Source: Magnetococcales bacterium
Lineage (GTDB): Bacteria; Pseudomonadota; Magnetococcia; Magnetococcales; Magnetaquicoccaceae
Direction: 5' to 3'
DNA: 39,452 bases
NCBI GenBank assembly: GCA_015231915.1
Contig: JADGAR010000033.1
Span: forward strand, 1 to 39,452
Each line of letters opens with the position of its first letter. Within the stretch, counting starts at the first letter, position 1. Of this stretch, positions 16,435 to 39,452 are shown in pieces. Both the position numbers and the translations under genes were made by a program. Below the pieces are notes generated by a model, which ran no database searches, was not told the DNA's origin, and saw nothing but the letters and a program-made list of their open reading frames with translations.

Positions 16435-16497
16435 TTACAGAAGATTTTGTCTTTTGGCCTCTTGCCATACAAATGGAGAGATTATTTTGAGATAACT

Positions 16498-17034
16498 TTA
16501 AATATAATTTCTTTCGATATATCCTTGGAAATGGCGCGCGCGCATATTTCGGTGCATGGGGTCGTCCAGATCCAGACGCGCGATGGTTTTTTGCACTTGT
16601 GCTTGCTGTTCTCTTTCCAGACCCGGATTAGGAAAGATATGTCCGATCACCAGTTCCAGATGAAACCAGCCATCTTCGATCAGGAATGGATTCAGGATAT
16701 CATCGAAGTGGTTTTTTCTGGTATTCATGCTGTGGCAGGCCAGTCGGTAATTGCTCCACTCGTAGGCATCCTGCGGCAGTCTGGATTTTGCGATGAAGTG
16801 ATCCACCGATGCGGTTCCCGTGCTTCTTTCGAAAAAGACCGCCAGATAGGCGCATGTGGCATGATAGGCCGCATAGAGATCGTCCAGGCAGGCTCTCCAA
16901 TGGTCGGCGATTGCGGTGCCCTGGGGCAGGGGTTGGTCGAGCGGGAGTGCTTTTTTCGCCAGATAGGCAAGCCCTTTTTGACGCACGGTTGCGTCGAACC
17001 GGGCGGGTTCGGGCTGGGCATCCACGTGAATCAT
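16498..17034 (-). CDS. HNH endonuclease, PtuB-like (Septu-type defence nuclease)
   Basis: 178 residues. The core reads VDHFIAKS (residues 77-84), YEWSNYRL (91-98) and MNTRKN (103-108), followed by ILNPF. This is the His-Asn-Asn/Lys arrangement of HNH nucleases of the TIGR02646/PtuB kind. The upstream CxxC zinc pair usual in that family is only partly present (CAYLA at 61-65). It starts with ATG 17034, whose ATGA overlaps the stop of the ATPase gene; an in-frame GTG at 17043 is possible. Translational coupling to the ATPase supports a PtuA-PtuB type complex that cuts nucleic acid when the ATPase senses phage. The role is inferred from family and context. The 3' side is AT-rich intergenic DNA down to the methyltransferase stop. 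Confidence 0.75.
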   Translation of the reverse strand: MIHVDAQPEPARFDATVRQKGLAYLAKKALPLDQPLPQGTAIADHWRACLDDLYAAYHATCAYLAVFFERSTGTASVDHFIAKSRLPQDAYEWSNYRLACHSMNTRKNHFDDILNPFLIEDGWFHLELVIGHIFPNPGLEREQQAQVQKTIARLDLDDPMHRNMRARHFQGYIERNYI

Positions 17035-18296
17035 GTGTTCCACCCCTTCTTTTCCATGACAAAGCGCCAGCGGATCCAGAACGGATCGGTATCCCCCAAC
17101 ACCTCACGCAAACGTTTTTCCAGGTTTCTGGCCATGGTCTCGGTCGCTGTCGGATCGCTCAGCACCCTGGTGACCTCGGCCAGGGCCTCTTCCGCTTCCA
17201 GGGAGAGGGCGCTTTGCAGATCGAAGGCCTTGCTGGTCAACCAGTTCGCGGCATCGCCACGCCTGGTGAAGGGCTGTTCCTCGACCTCGATGCGTGGCGG
17301 CGCAGGGTCCTCCCGGATCAGATCGATGTCGAACCATTTGTCTTGTGTGGGATCGAAATACGGCTCCAGGGAGGCCAGGATCAGGGGGGAGTGGGTGGAC
17401 AAGATCATTTGAACCTTGCTGTCGGCCATCTCGCCCAGGCTTTGGGTGACGTTCAGCAGGGAACGGATGATGCTGCGTTGCCATTTCGGGTGGAGATGGC
17501 ATTCGATTTCATCCACCAGAAGTACGATCTGGCTCACCCTGGGCATGCCGAGCAGTTTGCACGCCAGAACGTGTTCCTGCCAGGCCCAGATCAGCAGATA
17601 CGCCAGGGCGATGATGCGGCGCATCCCGGACGAGGCGTGCAATACCGGCACATCCTGTCCGTAAGGCATGCGCAAGGTCGGAATGTCCCGTGCGTCGTCC
17701 AGACGGATGCGGGTCAGGTCGCCGATGGCGATTCGTTCGTCGGGGGTCGGGGAAAGTGCCTCCAGGACCGCTTGCAACTGTCGAAAAGCCTGCCCGTTTT
17801 CTTTCTGCCAACCGGCCCAGTCGGCGATCAGGCCGTTGCACAGTCGTCTGCCGGAGGCGTCCTCCAGGCCATGCCAGACCTCCTGTTGGGTGAATACATA
17901 GGCTGGGGGCAGGTTGGAACGGGAATTGCGGGCCGGATCCCAAATGGAGAAGCCGCCGTCCACCTGTACGTAGATTGAAACGCTCTGTTTATCTGAATGT
18001 AGATGATATCTACCCCATTGTTGTTTAAATCGATTAAAAAAACTTGCATAAGTTGTATTAGTCAATAAATAACGAATATAGGCTTTGTCTTTGTTGTGTG
18101 GTTTGGCCATCATGCCGCTGGAAAGATTGGCATTGACCTCCGCAGGCCATGTTCCGGTCACAGCCCACCAGGCGATATCCAACAGGAAGGTCTTTCCCAC
18201 CCCGTTGTCGCCTGTCAACAGGTTGATGCGCGGCCCGAACGACAATGCCATGGAGGCAGCAGGCCCCACATTTTCCAGGGTCAAGTTGGTCAGCAC
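17031..18296 (-). CDS. AAA/ABC-type ATPase, PtuA-like (Septu/OLD-type defence ATPase)
   Basis: 421 residues from GTG 18296. The start VLTNLTLENVGP is the typical first strand of this family, and GAGG lies 8 nt upstream; the frame is open further back but overlaps the preceding gene. Walker A is GDNGVGKT (residues 29-36), an ABC-like signature SSGMRR lies near 223, Walker B LLVDEIECHLHP near 261, and the switch histidine LSTHSPL near 300. No TOPRIM nuclease domain follows, unlike OLD/Gabija proteins, which fits a separate nuclease partner. A stretch from about 17975 to 18095 is markedly AT-rich and codes for a polar insert after Walker A. It is the middle gene of a three-gene set and overlaps the HNH gene. 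Confidence 0.8.
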   Translation of the reverse strand: MLTNLTLENVGPAASMALSFGPRINLLTGDNGVGKTFLLDIAWWAVTGTWPAEVNANLSSGMMAKPHNKDKAYIRYLLTNTTYASFFNRFKQQWGRYHLHSDKQSVSIYVQVDGGFSIWDPARNSRSNLPPAYVFTQQEVWHGLEDASGRRLCNGLIADWAGWQKENGQAFRQLQAVLEALSPTPDERIAIGDLTRIRLDDARDIPTLRMPYGQDVPVLHASSGMRRIIALAYLLIWAWQEHVLACKLLGMPRVSQIVLLVDEIECHLHPKWQRSIIRSLLNVTQSLGEMADSKVQMILSTHSPLILASLEPYFDPTQDKWFDIDLIREDPAPPRIEVEEQPFTRRGDAANWLTSKAFDLQSALSLEAEEALAEVTRVLSDPTATETMARNLEKRLREVLGDTDPFWIRWRFVMEKKGWNT

Positions 18297-18318
18297 GGCA
18301 ATTGCCTCGTGTGTAATC

Positions 18319-18663
18319 TCACGCCGCCAGCCTGCCTTCGTTTTCGCACACGCAGGGACCAGGCGGCGCCTTCTGTCCATCCGGAACGGCAAACTGGACC
18401 GGGACACTGGAAAAACAGTACTGCTGATCCGCCTTTTGCAGCATCACCTGCCTGCCGTGCAGGGCCAGGATCAGGCATTGCGGGTCCACGTGCATCAGTT
18501 GGCCGCCAGCCGTGATCGTGATGGCCAGATCCAGCCAGATCGGCAAGGGCAGACTTCCCCAGCCGTTGGCGAGCAGGGTATGCATGTGGGCGCGCCGGAA
18601 ATTCAGCAAGGCATTCCCGGCGTTCATGGTCTCCAGGGAGGGGGTGAGGTCAGGGGCGTTCAT
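18319..18663 (-). CDS. small protein of unknown function, first gene of the ATPase-HNH set
   Basis: 114 residues from ATG 18663 (a GTG lies directly before it), with GAGGA about 10 nt upstream. No family recognised. It has a helical N-terminal third (NALLNFRRAHMHTLLANGW), a likely beta-rich middle (LDLAITITAGGQ, CLILALHGRQVML) and a Pro/Cys-containing tail (PPGPCVCENEG). There is no signal peptide or clear membrane helix. It ends 22 nt before the ATPase start and is separated by 87 nt from the end of secA, so it is probably the promoter-proximal gene of the defence-like operon. It could be a sensor, an inhibitor or a regulator. Coding status is supported by spacing and start signal only. Confidence 0.5.
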   Translation of the reverse strand: MNAPDLTPSLETMNAGNALLNFRRAHMHTLLANGWGSLPLPIWLDLAITITAGGQLMHVDPQCLILALHGRQVMLQKADQQYCFSSVPVQFAVPDGQKAPPGPCVCENEGRLAA

Positions 18664-18750: not shown

Positions 18751-21459
<2,709 letters not shown>

Positions 21460-21761: not shown

Positions 21762-22286
21762 ATGGATTACGCGGATATTTTGCATGCCTTGCAATTCGTC
21801 ACCCCATTCGATCTTTATCGTCTGCGCATCGGCATCGATGCCTTGCTGGATGATCCGGCGCGTCTGCTGCCGGTCAAGCGGCGCGTTCATATCGGCCTGG
21901 AGATCCTTTTTTTCAATGCACGGGAAAATCGTGTTATGACAGGAGTTGTTGAAAAGGTACAAAGAACAACCTTGGATGTTCGCGCCAAGCCGGAAGGAAC
22001 CTTTTGGCGCATCCCGCTTTATGCCGTGAACATGGCAGGCGTGGATGCCGGGATCCACGCCGCCTCCAGCGCAGAACCCTCCGGGAAGGATCACTTCAAG
22101 GTTGGCGACGCCATCGGGTTCCATGGCCGCGACAATCGGGAACGCTACGGCGTCATCCTCAAAATCAACCAGAAGACCGCCACCATCCTGACCCGCGAGG
22201 GAACGCGCTGGCGCGTGGCATTTTCGTTGCTTTTCAAGGTGATGGATGGTGATATGGCCGCAGGAGGCACCCTCTACTCCTCCTGA
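21762..22286 (+). CDS. conserved-looking small protein with two SH3-like beta segments, function unknown
   Basis: 174 residues from ATG 21762 (GAGG about 10 nt upstream; the frame is open further left but without start signals). No family recognised. Two segments look alike: RRVHIGLEILFFNARENRVMTG followed by VVEKVQRTTLDVR, and FKVGDAIGFHGRDNRERYGV followed by ILKINQKTATIL. Both have the rhythm of SH3/KOW-like barrels in which a surface strand is followed by a thread-through strand. The protein is cytoplasmic by appearance. It has its own promoter and converges on the NACHT gene with a 13-nt tail overlap, so transcripts of the two could interfere. Confidence 0.65.
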   Translation: MDYADILHALQFVTPFDLYRLRIGIDALLDDPARLLPVKRRVHIGLEILFFNARENRVMTGVVEKVQRTTLDVRAKPEGTFWRIPLYAVNMAGVDAGIHAASSAEPSGKDHFKVGDAIGFHGRDNRERYGVILKINQKTATILTREGTRWRVAFSLLFKVMDGDMAAGGTLYSS

Positions 22287-24445
22287 TTGTCGTTTCGTTC
22301 CAGGGCCTGGCTGACCAGCCATTCGGAGCGCTCGTCGGCCAGGACCCGCGCCAGTTCCTGATAGGCCTTCAGGCCGCGCACGCTGCGCACACAACTGAAC
22401 AAAGGCCGTCCCTGGATCTCCATGCGGCCCTCCTGGCGGCGTGTCTGCAAAATCCCGCGCAGTCGGCTCAATCGCTCTTCGGTGAACCAGGAGCGCCACA
22501 AATGGGTCAACCGGTCCCAGGCGGGGGTGTCCCCCTCCTGGCCGGCATGGGCCGCCTCGTCGAAAATCCATACCCGGATATCCAAAACCGAGCGCAGGAT
22601 GATCAGATTCAGGCTGTAAATCGCCAGATGTCCCAGCAGCGGAACAGGGGTGAACCACTCCCCATGGCCGCCGGTCATCAGCGCCGGCGGGGAGCTGCCG
22701 CGCAAAATCCAATGCAACTGCCCCTGAATCATCTCGTCCAGGGTGGCCAGAAAGTCGTTCCGGTCCAATCCGGTGCCGCGCTCCCCTTTTTCCGGGGCGA
22801 GGGTGGACTGCACCCGTTCCCGCATCATGGCCAGGACTCCGGGGCGGTCGAAGAGCGGGGTGTAGCCCAAGGTGGCCAGCCAGCGCAACGGGGTGTGGGC
22901 CGGATTGGCAAAGCGCTCCTCGGCCAGCTTGCGCTGAGACCGGTTGCGCCCCCGCCGTTCCCGGTAGAGGCGTGTCACCTCGTCACAGGTCATGCGCACG
23001 ATGAAATCAGCGGTGAGAAACTCCGCGAACGCCCCATGCCAGAACGAAAAGCTGCGCGACGACTCCTTCTCCCGATGCATGGCTCCGGGCATGGCCCGGC
23101 GTCCCCGGTCGGCGACATTGACGAAAAACAGCCGCTCCAGCAGCATGGCCACCGGTTGACCCGGAACGATTTCGACCCCTTCGGCGTGCAGGATGCGGGT
23201 GTCGCTCTCCAGTTGATCGGCGCGGATGGACAAGGCATGCCGGTGAAACATCCCCAGCGCCGCTCCCCCCAGTCGCAACAGGGCCATGGCGCAGGGATCC
23301 CCGTCCGCAGGGGTCAGGGCGCAGGCCACGAAGCGCTGGGTGATCTGTTGGTACAGTGCGGAACGGGTCAAGGCCCCGCAGCTGCGCAAGGGATTGCCAT
23401 CCGCGTCCAGGACCGCCAGCAGGGAGAGCAGAAACGGCGTTTCCGCCAGCTGCAAGACGGCGGGATTTTCCGGGGTATGAAAAGGTTGAATTCCGGTCTG
23501 CTTGAAAAAGGGCCGGTTGGTCCGGTTCCACAGGCGGATCCAGTGGGCGCGCTGCCCATCGTCGAACGGCTCCAGCCGTACCACCATCGCCCCCACCGGG
23601 ATATCCGCGCGGTCGATCACCTCGGTGCGGCTGGTGATGATCACCCGTGCCGGTCTGGCCAGCGAGCTTTCCAGTTCCTGGAAACGGCGCACCTTTTCCG
23701 GATAGTCCCGAAACACCTTTTCGTTGGCGCCCAGCAGTTCGTTCATCCCGTCCAGGATCACCACCGGAAAGCGGGCGCGCACCGCACGGCTCAGGCTGCC
23801 CCAGTCGATTTTGGTTCCCAGGTCGTTGCGCAACTGCTCTTCGATTTGCGCCTGGATCGTGGCCTTGGCGTCCACTGCGCCCAGCATCACCCGCACCGGA
23901 TGAAACGCCGATGAGGAGAGATGTGCGGCCAGCACGCGCGACAACAGGGTTTTGCCGGCTCCCGGCGGGGCCAGGATCACCAGCGGTGTGAACAGGCTGT
24001 AGACCGATTGCAGCCACAACAGGAGGAAACGCCCCAGATCCGCGCGGCGCGTGAACTGCGCCCAGAACAGGTCGTCCCCGTAATGCCGCTCCCCGGGTTC
24101 GTGCCGCACCCCGCGAAATGCCTGGGGAATGAATGCCTGCACGATGCGTGGTGCGGTCAGGACGTGTCCCTGGATCACCGGCGCCTGCTGCACCGAAAAG
24201 AGCGGTGCCAACAGTTCGCTCGTGTAGATGCGGCTCAACTCCGTCCAGTGGGCATCCGGTGTCCATGCCTCGCCCGTCGCGGGCAGGGCGCGGATCGCCT
24301 TGCGAAAACGGGCAAATCCTACATCCGTTGATTCTTGGGGTGTCGGAGCCAAAAAACGCTTAATTTTAATGTTCAGATTGGCTTCTTCATGCTGTATGAA
24401 ATCATCAAGATGGTGAAATGGTAATCCATATTCCATGGGTGCCAC
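22274..24445 (-). CDS. NACHT-type STAND NTPase (NLR-like)
   Basis: 723 residues from GTG 24445, which has AGAGGG 5 nt upstream; ATG 24436 is the alternative. A longer frame reaches 24577 but its first residues would be encoded by a transcription terminator. The central NTPase has P-loop APPGAGKT near residue 161, Walker B VVILDGMNE near 229 (NACHT-style with the extra acidic residue), the sensor strand RVIITSRTEV near 268, and a winged-helix part ending in FSFWHGAFAEFLTADF near 470, where NACHT proteins usually read FxHxxFQEFLAA. The N-terminal ~150 residues match no effector I know. The C-terminal ~250 residues show no clear repeats, only a hydrophobic stretch (AIYSLNLIILRSVLDI). Short-tailed bacterial NACHT proteins are known anti-phage sensors, so defence is the best guess, not proven. 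Confidence 0.8.
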   Translation of the reverse strand: MAPMEYGLPFHHLDDFIQHEEANLNIKIKRFLAPTPQESTDVGFARFRKAIRALPATGEAWTPDAHWTELSRIYTSELLAPLFSVQQAPVIQGHVLTAPRIVQAFIPQAFRGVRHEPGERHYGDDLFWAQFTRRADLGRFLLLWLQSVYSLFTPLVILAPPGAGKTLLSRVLAAHLSSSAFHPVRVMLGAVDAKATIQAQIEEQLRNDLGTKIDWGSLSRAVRARFPVVILDGMNELLGANEKVFRDYPEKVRRFQELESSLARPARVIITSRTEVIDRADIPVGAMVVRLEPFDDGQRAHWIRLWNRTNRPFFKQTGIQPFHTPENPAVLQLAETPFLLSLLAVLDADGNPLRSCGALTRSALYQQITQRFVACALTPADGDPCAMALLRLGGAALGMFHRHALSIRADQLESDTRILHAEGVEIVPGQPVAMLLERLFFVNVADRGRRAMPGAMHREKESSRSFSFWHGAFAEFLTADFIVRMTCDEVTRLYRERRGRNRSQRKLAEERFANPAHTPLRWLATLGYTPLFDRPGVLAMMRERVQSTLAPEKGERGTGLDRNDFLATLDEMIQGQLHWILRGSSPPALMTGGHGEWFTPVPLLGHLAIYSLNLIILRSVLDIRVWIFDEAAHAGQEGDTPAWDRLTHLWRSWFTEERLSRLRGILQTRRQEGRMEIQGRPLFSCVRSVRGLKAYQELARVLADERSEWLVSQALERNDNQEE

Positions 24446-24491
24446 GGTTTCCCTCTGCGCCTTGTCGTTGTTGCTTTGCTCCAGGGGAGGA

Positions 24492-24518
24492 GTTATAACA
24501 TGAAAAATGCCACGCCAA
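24492..24518 (-). promoter_or_regulatory. possible promoter of the NACHT gene
   Basis: Read on the (-) strand: TTGGCG, a 15-nt spacer, then TATAAC, about 47 nt before GTG 24445 and just after the upstream terminator. The spacing is short, so this is tentative. Confidence 0.3.
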
Positions 24519-24551
24519 AATGGTTTAATAGCAAAAATCCAGCCTGCAGCC

Positions 24552-24585
24552 AAAAAAAACGCCCCCGGCCAAACCACCGGGGGCG
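24552..24585 (-). terminator. Rho-independent terminator of the qmo/hdr operon
   Basis: A perfect 9-bp GC stem (24577-24585 with 24560-24568) and 8-nt loop, followed on the (-) strand by eight T residues (24559-24552). It lies 26 nt after the hdrB-like stop codon. Confidence 0.9.
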
Positions 24586-37805: not shown

Positions 37806-38120
37806 ATGAGCAGGACTCCGATTCCAAAACGACTCAAAGAAGCCAGAGACCGTGTGGGACTCTCCCAGACGGAACTGGGGGTTGCTGCCGGGATGGATCC
37901 TTCCGGGGCAAGCCCACGGATGAATCAATACGAACGGGACAGGCACGTTCCCGACTTTCAGACTGTGAAGCGGATTGCCGCTGTCCTGGGCTACCCTGTC
38001 CCCTATTTCTACGCCGAGGATGACGATCTCGCCGAGATCCTTCTGCATCTGGGCAAGATGGATGACGACGCGAGGTCAACCGTGTTGGCAGATCTGCGGA
38101 AGTCAGCCTGCCGGGGATGA
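37806..38120 (+). CDS. XRE-family helix-turn-helix transcriptional regulator
   Basis: 104 residues. The HTH at about 8-67 reads RLKEARDRVGLSQTELGVAA, then NQYERDRHVPDFQTVKRIA and VLGYPVPYFY, the classical Cro/C1 pattern with a helical tail (DDLAEILLHLGKMDDDAR). It probably represses its own gene and the divergent thermonuclease through the two CTAAG palindromes. It overlaps the convergent 38103 gene by 18 nt. Confidence 0.88.
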   Translation: MSRTPIPKRLKEARDRVGLSQTELGVAAGMDPSGASPRMNQYERDRHVPDFQTVKRIAAVLGYPVPYFYAEDDDLAEILLHLGKMDDDARSTVLADLRKSACRG

Positions 38121-38495: not shown

Positions 38496-38894
38496 TCATC
38501 CCGGATCCGGGATGCCCCACCGCTCGCGCTGTTCACTCCAGAGCATCGGAAACGTTTTGCGTAACTCCTCCCAGGTCATGCTGTCCGGTTGCCGTCCATC
38601 CAGGATGAGTTCGATGATGTCCGGTGCCAGCAGCGTCAGGCGCAGGATCTTGGCCATGTAGGAGGCGTCGGTCTTTTTGTACTCCGCAAGTTCCCGGACG
38701 GAGGCGAATTTCTTTCCCTCCAGGAGCTTCAGCCAGTGATGCGCCCGGACCACCAGTTTGGCCAGACTGTCCTCCCGAGGCTGGGCCAGGGCCATCCCCT
38801 CTGGAGCGATGATCAACGTGCGTCCCCCACGCTTGCGCATCTGCATGGGGATGCTGACGATGATCGTGCCGTCCCTGCTCAATTCCGCCTTCAT
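38496..38894 (-). CDS. ParB/KorB-like HTH protein downstream of serine recombinase
   Basis: 132 residues from ATG 38894 (ATGA overlap with the recombinase stop). The N-terminus is beta-rich (GTIIVSIPMQMRKRGGRTLI). The centre reads FASVRELAEYKKTDASYMAK, then ILRLTLLAPDIIELILDG, the helix-turn-helix and following helix of ParB/KorB-like DNA-binding domains. No ParB nuclease/CTPase motif is present. Coupling to the recombinase suggests an accessory factor for integration or excision, or a regulator. Confidence 0.72.
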   Translation of the reverse strand: MKAELSRDGTIIVSIPMQMRKRGGRTLIIAPEGMALAQPREDSLAKLVVRAHHWLKLLEGKKFASVRELAEYKKTDASYMAKILRLTLLAPDIIELILDGRQPDSMTWEELRKTFPMLWSEQRERWGIPDPG

Positions 38895-39452
38895 GCCGAT
38901 TTCTCCTTTCCGTTTCCGTTCCAAAGACCGTTCAGTTCCCGAGCCAGCGTGTTCAGCCCGGTGGCGCGCAAATGCACCTGGACGCCACTCTTTTCCACGT
39001 CCACCTTGCTGATGAGCAGTTGCACCAGCCGTTGCTGCTCGACCGGGAACAACTCCTCCCAGACCGGTTCCAACCGTCGCAGGGCCTCGACCACGTCGCG
39101 TTCGTTGATCCCTTCCTCCGACTGCCAGGTCTTGACCACCATCTCCGGAGCGCGCAGCATGGTGCGCACTTGGCCGATGGCCACGGCCTCGATCTCTCCG
39201 GCGGGCACGGCACGCAGGGGGCAGGTTTCGCGTCCGTGCTTGTCGGCTCCATGGCAGACGTAGTAGCGATAGAGCCGTCCCGTCTTGCGGGTAAACGTGG
39301 GTCGCATGGCCCGGTCGCAGTGGTGGCACCGGATGATCCCTTTGAGCAAGGATGGGGTCTGCACCCGGACCCGATCCGGGTTGTAATGGTTGTTGTCCGC
39401 CATGATGGCGTGAACCTGATCCCACAACTCCCGGTCGATGATTGCCTCGTGT
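38891..39452 (-). CDS. large serine recombinase, C-terminal part (cut by window edge)
   Basis: The frame is open to the window end, so the gene starts outside; about 187 codons are visible. It has the C-terminal region of large serine recombinases: the end of the recombinase domain (AIIDRELWDQVHAIM), the zinc beta-ribbon (LLKGIIRCHHCDRAMRPTFT, then YYVCHGADKHGRETCP), and a helical tail (VVEALRRLEPVWEELFPVEQ, RLVQLLISKVDVEKSG) typical of integrases. The catalytic N-terminal serine domain is not in the window. It marks an integrative element or prophage. Confidence 0.88.
   Translation of the reverse strand, partial: HEAIIDRELWDQVHAIMADNNHYNPDRVRVQTPSLLKGIIRCHHCDRAMRPTFTRKTGRLYRYYVCHGADKHGRETCPLRAVPAGEIEAVAIGQVRTMLRAPEMVVKTWQSEEGINERDVVEALRRLEPVWEELFPVEQQRLVQLLISKVDVEKSGVQVHLRATGLNTLARELNGLWNGNGKEKSA

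What the first reader, a model, noticed from the sequence alone, without database searches (positions are those of the whole stretch)
16498..18663. Septu-like three-gene candidate defence operon next to secA
An ABC-type ATPase with Walker A, signature, Walker B and switch His overlaps an HNH nuclease (ATGA coupling), the PtuA-PtuB arrangement of Septu. Septu as usually described has only these two genes; here a 114-residue unknown protein precedes them with a short gap. No reverse transcriptase is near, so it is not a retron. This may be a variant or a known three-gene relative (for example Menshen-type sets); I cannot tell which from sequence alone.
Basis: partly seen in the sequence, partly recalled or inferred. 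Interest (0 to 1): 0.7.

Follow-up and report, generated by a model that had tools for sequence, protein, structure and literature searches.

The report
Septu phage-defence pair plus orphan gene
This is an ordinary two-gene Septu anti-phage system next to secA in a magnetotactic-type bacterium; the third small gene is a lineage-specific orphan that almost no other Septu has, and this copy's nuclease gene carries an early stop codon that may cripple it.

Summary
On the minus strand, directly after secA, lie a 114-aa ORF (18319-18663), an ABC-type ATPase (17031-18296) and an HNH protein (16498-17034) joined by ATGA. The last two are Septu PtuA and PtuB by PADLOC (E = 8e-160 and 4e-61), with motifs present and the PtuB fold confirmed by structure search. 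No reverse transcriptase lies on the contig, so it is not a retron, and nothing supports Menshen. The three-gene reading fails: of 64 PtuA relatives with upstream sequence, only one has the small gene, a sister species with the same secA locus, and a profile search of 398 Pseudomonadota genomes finds it only in these two. It looks like a real gene (dN/dS about 0.33) but an orphan. Elsewhere the slot before ptuA holds unrelated, often defence-like genes. The copy may be defective, or the stop may be an assembly error. New member of a known kind, low interest; a recurrent Eco57I-type methylase before ptuA (8 of 66 loci) is the better three-gene lead.

The parts
17031..18296 (-). ptuA, ABC-type (AAA_21) ATPase of Septu, 421 aa, GTG start (ORF open from 18407)
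   Evidence: PADLOC PDLC00307 PtuA 8e-160; Pfam AAA_21 9e-24; start set by the ATG at the same place in L004; nearly all family-conserved residues kept
16498..17034 (-). ptuB, HNH nuclease of Septu, 178 aa as written, ATGA overlap with ptuA, ends at an early TAA (16498-16500)
   Evidence: PADLOC PDLC00348 PtuB 4e-61; H, N, N and K of the HNH core invariant in 57 homologues and present here; fold search with the sister copy's model finds PtuB chains
16435..16497 (-). former C-terminal end of ptuB, still in frame after the TAA (SYLKIISPFVWQEAKRQNLL, then stop)
   Evidence: motif SPFVWxEAxRQ kept in the other homologues (columns conserved in 50-56 of 57); two helices with block pLDDT about 93-95 in the sister model
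18319..18663 (-). 114-aa orphan gene, 22 nt before ptuA and about 88 nt after secA; not a conserved Septu part
   Evidence: no significant family in PADLOC, Pfam or NCBIfam; only other copy in the sister species; dN/dS 0.33
18751..21459 (-). secA (neighbour, not part of the system)
   Evidence: 902 aa, 78-96% identical in genus-mates

Best explanation
The locus is a Septu type I system (PtuA ATPase plus PtuB HNH nuclease) present next to secA in two sister Magnetococcales species. By analogy with studied Septu pairs, PtuA forms an ATP-regulated oligomer that controls PtuB, and during phage infection PtuB cuts nucleic acid (phage DNA or a host tRNA, depending on the subfamily) and stops the infection. 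Shown here: gene identity, motifs, fold, coupling, and that the pair stands without the small gene almost everywhere. Inferred: oligomer, trigger and target. The small upstream gene is a real, lineage-specific gene of unknown role that is co-located with ptuAB but is not a defining part. In this genome PtuB is cut short by a stop codon that removes its conserved C-terminal helices, so this copy is probably impaired unless the stop is an assembly error.
For: PADLOC PtuA 8e-160 and PtuB 4e-61; model of the sister PtuB (pLDDT 86) matches PtuB chains of E. coli Septu 8eea and retron I-A complexes with probability 1.00; 66 PtuA relatives across many phyla, with a PtuB-like ORF directly downstream in nearly all where sequence allows; small gene in 1 of 64 loci and 2 of 398 genomes; early stop and lost motif. 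Mechanism from the literature: PMC13096335 (Septu cuts tRNA-Tyr; Walker and HNH residues needed), PMC11555353 (retron PtuAB depletes tRNA-Tyr; cites E. coli Septu acting on DNA).
Against: No activity is shown. PtuB misses the Pfam HNH cut-off (17 bits against 21), and both proteins fall below the NCBIfam retron PtuA/PtuB cut-offs, so trigger and target cannot be carried over with confidence. Whether the early stop abolishes function is untested.
Confidence: 0.85

Rival explanations
1. A three-gene Septu variant in which the small protein is a working accessory (for example an inhibitor or sensor of PtuAB) recently added in this lineage.
For: Same order and same 22-nt spacing in both species that have it, never found without ptuAB, under purifying selection.
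Against: Found in only two closely related genomes; 63 other PtuA loci with upstream sequence do without it; its GC3 (0.80) resembles secA (0.82), not ptuA (0.71) or ptuB (0.59).
Confidence: 0.13
2. The system here is dead: the PtuB truncation has inactivated the pair and the locus is starting to decay. (This is compatible with the best explanation's account of what the genes are.)
For: In-frame TAA 21 codons before the end used by homologues; the lost segment carries a motif kept in the other aligned homologues and forms two confident helices.
Against: The motif after the stop is intact and PtuA is fully conserved, so the change is recent or an assembly error; truncated PtuB may still work.
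Confidence: 0.4
3. Menshen or another known three-gene ATPase system.
For: Only the superficial pattern of ATPase plus nuclease plus a third gene.
Against: Best models for both large proteins are PtuA and PtuB by a wide margin, and the small protein matches none of the PADLOC models.
Confidence: 0.02
4. Retron type I-A (Septu type II) whose reverse transcriptase lies further away.
For: PtuA and PtuB are relatives of the retron Ec78 and Ec83 effectors.
Against: No RVT_1 match on contig C60; the genome's reverse transcriptase matches are on other contigs.
Confidence: 0.02

Closest known systems
Septu type I (PtuA + PtuB; PADLOC PtuA1/PtuB1 models, PDLC00307 and PDLC00348)
   Same: ATPase and HNH nuclease, order, overlap, motifs, fold; this clade is already covered by the PADLOC models
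   Different: PtuB here stops 21 codons early; an extra orphan gene precedes ptuA
Retron I-A / Septu type II (Ec78, Ec83)
   Same: homologous PtuA and PtuB
   Different: no reverse transcriptase on the contig; PtuA is 421 aa against about 550
Menshen
   Different: no support in PADLOC matches

Membership tests
Septu type I | PtuA-family ABC-type ATPase with Walker A, signature, Walker B and switch His | tested here: met
   PDLC00307 8e-160; motifs present and conserved
Septu type I | PtuB-family HNH nuclease with its conserved core residues | tested here: met
   PDLC00348 4e-61; H82, N98, N107, K110 invariant in 57 sequences including this one; fold match to 8eea and others
Septu type I | PtuB complete to its conserved C-terminus (needed for a working copy, not for ancestry) | tested here: not met
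   early TAA removes 21 codons; this bears on the function of this copy, not on whether the genes are ptuA and ptuB
Septu type I | ptuA and ptuB adjacent on one strand, no reverse transcriptase | tested here: met
   ATGA overlap; RVT_1 absent from the contig
Septu type I | anti-phage activity | not testable with these tools
   needs phage challenge
Retron I-A (Septu type II) | reverse transcriptase gene preceding ptuA | tested here: not met
   neighbours are secA and the small orphan gene
Menshen | its specific protein families | tested here: inconclusive
   the small protein matches no PADLOC model; for the ATPase only the best 25 of 149 matches were shown and none is labelled Menshen

The most novel reading that the evidence does not exclude
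The 114-aa protein is a newly evolved, lineage-specific accessory of Septu (for example a regulator of PtuAB), making this a three-gene Septu subtype restricted to two Magnetococcales species.
Probability: 0.13. Interest if true: 0.4.

Novelty: new member of a known kind. Interest (0 to 1): 0.2.

Why it matters
It adds a Magnetococcales example to a well-known defence family and answers the three-gene question by showing that the extra gene does not travel with the pair. The truncated PtuB beside an intact sister copy gives a natural test of what the conserved C-terminal helices of PtuB do. If the small gene were an accessory, it would show a defence system gaining a part very recently.

Tried and rejected
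Small protein searched in PADLOC, Pfam, NCBIfam, plasmids, phages, viral contigs, its own order and 398 phylum genomes: no relative beyond the sister species. AlphaFold of the small protein from two sequences was useless (pLDDT 38), so no fold search was made with it. Idea that the small gene is the normal gene after secA: genus-mates have other genes there and no convincing match (E 0.03 at best, on the opposite strand). Promoter and terminator scans found nothing above chance. Menshen papers are not in the library; the Septu structure paper PMC12318543 is not held. Other ptuA starts (GTG 18407; ATT 18302 or 18317) were rejected in favour of GTG 18296.

Full report
What is there. The window lies in a Magnetococcales-type genome (closest public relative: Magnetococcales bacterium WMHbin3, L004). 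On the minus strand downstream of secA (18751-21459) are a 114-aa ORF (18319-18663), an ATPase ORF and an HNH ORF. The ATPase ORF is open from GTG 18407, overlapping the small gene, but the sister species has an ATG exactly where the window has GTG 18296, preceded by CACGAGG in both, so the gene is 17031-18296, 421 aa, 22 nt after the small gene. The HNH gene begins at ATG 17034 inside ATGA.

What the two large proteins are. PADLOC names them PtuA (PDLC00307, 8e-160, nearly full length) and PtuB (PDLC00348, 4e-61). Pfam gives AAA_21 for the ATPase. The ATPase has all expected motifs, and nearly all residues conserved in at least 95% of 61 homologues are kept. The HNH core (H, N, N, K) is invariant in 57 PtuB sequences including this one. 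An AlphaFold model of the sister PtuB (pLDDT 86) matches PtuB chains of E. coli Septu (8eea) and of retron I-A complexes with probability 1.00, though with TM about 0.59. The pair is therefore Septu. PADLOC's authors define the reverse-transcriptase-led form as Septu type II, the same as retron I-A (PMC8565338); this genome's RVT_1 matches are on other contigs, so this is type I.

The third gene. It has codon-position GC like real genes and dN/dS 0.33 against the sister copy without indels, so it is probably translated. But of 66 PtuA relatives from many phyla only L004 has it: 1 of 64 loci with at least 500 nt of upstream sequence. Whole-genome searches find it in 2 of 48 genomes of the class and 2 of 398 of the phylum, in each case the window genome and one genus-mate, G001, at the same secA site. 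Another genus-mate, G008, has a more distant PtuA (49%) and no small gene. Genus-mates without ptuAB have other genes after secA. Elsewhere the slot before ptuA is filled by an Eco57I-type methylase (8 loci), Schlafen/AlbA (3), AAA_21 (3), AIPR (2), TIR (2), GmrSD (2), UvrD (2), DUF4276 and others. The small gene is thus an orphan co-located with Septu in one lineage, not a conserved component.

The window's PtuB ends at TAA 16498-16500. The sister PtuB and almost all other homologues run 21 codons further and end in SPFVWxEAxRQGLL; the window still encodes SPFVWQEAKRQNLL in the same frame after the stop. In the alignment these columns are conserved in 50-56 of 57, the window itself being the one gap, and the sister model forms two helices there (179-185, 187-195) with block pLDDT about 93-95. 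The stop removes exactly this end. Either it is a recent nonsense change that impairs the system, or an assembly error; the data here cannot tell.

How it most likely works. By established work PtuA is an ATP-dependent oligomer and PtuB the nuclease (solved complexes listed); Walker and HNH residues are both needed, and one Septu pair acts by cutting tRNA-Tyr (PMC13096335), while another Septu is reported to act on DNA and retron Eco7 PtuAB depletes tRNA-Tyr (PMC11555353). Which target applies to this clade is unknown. Steps shown here: identity, motifs, fold, gene order. Steps inferred: oligomer, trigger, target, and loss of function through the early stop.

Verdict. Observation confirmed, Septu naming right, three-gene claim not supported. 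An ordinary member of a known kind with a possibly damaged PtuB; interest 0.2.

Noticed in passing
L008, L009, L022, L042 (overlap or touch ptuA), L029, L063, L068, L014: An Eco57I / N6-methylase protein (about 1150 aa where complete) sits directly before ptuA in 8 of 66 relatives from several phyla, often overlapping it by a few bases: a recurrent methylase-PtuA-PtuB set. A library search for Septu with Eco57I showed no paper on it among the eight listed.
   Followed up: partly
L013, L049, L050; L016, L025: An AAA_21 ATPase gene is directly before ptuA (gap 3-10 nt) in three relatives; DUF4276 genes lie 62-193 nt before ptuA in L016 and L025.
   Followed up: partly
L004:7182-8726: The sister species carries a 515-aa autotransporter-domain gene between ptuB and the next gene, absent from the window.
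   Followed up: no
window 22274-24577 (-): 767-aa protein with a weak STAND/AAA ATPase match (nSTAND3, below cut-off), on the other side of secA; no PADLOC match.
   Followed up: no
window 37806-38120 (+): 104-aa HTH protein matching PADLOC restriction-modification 'Control_protein' (3e-27), no restriction gene examined nearby; a recombinase zinc-ribbon protein follows at 38891-39427.
   Followed up: no
window 16498-18296: ptuB and ptuA have lower GC3 (0.59, 0.71) than secA (0.82), fitting horizontal gain, while the small gene (0.80) is host-like.
   Followed up: partly
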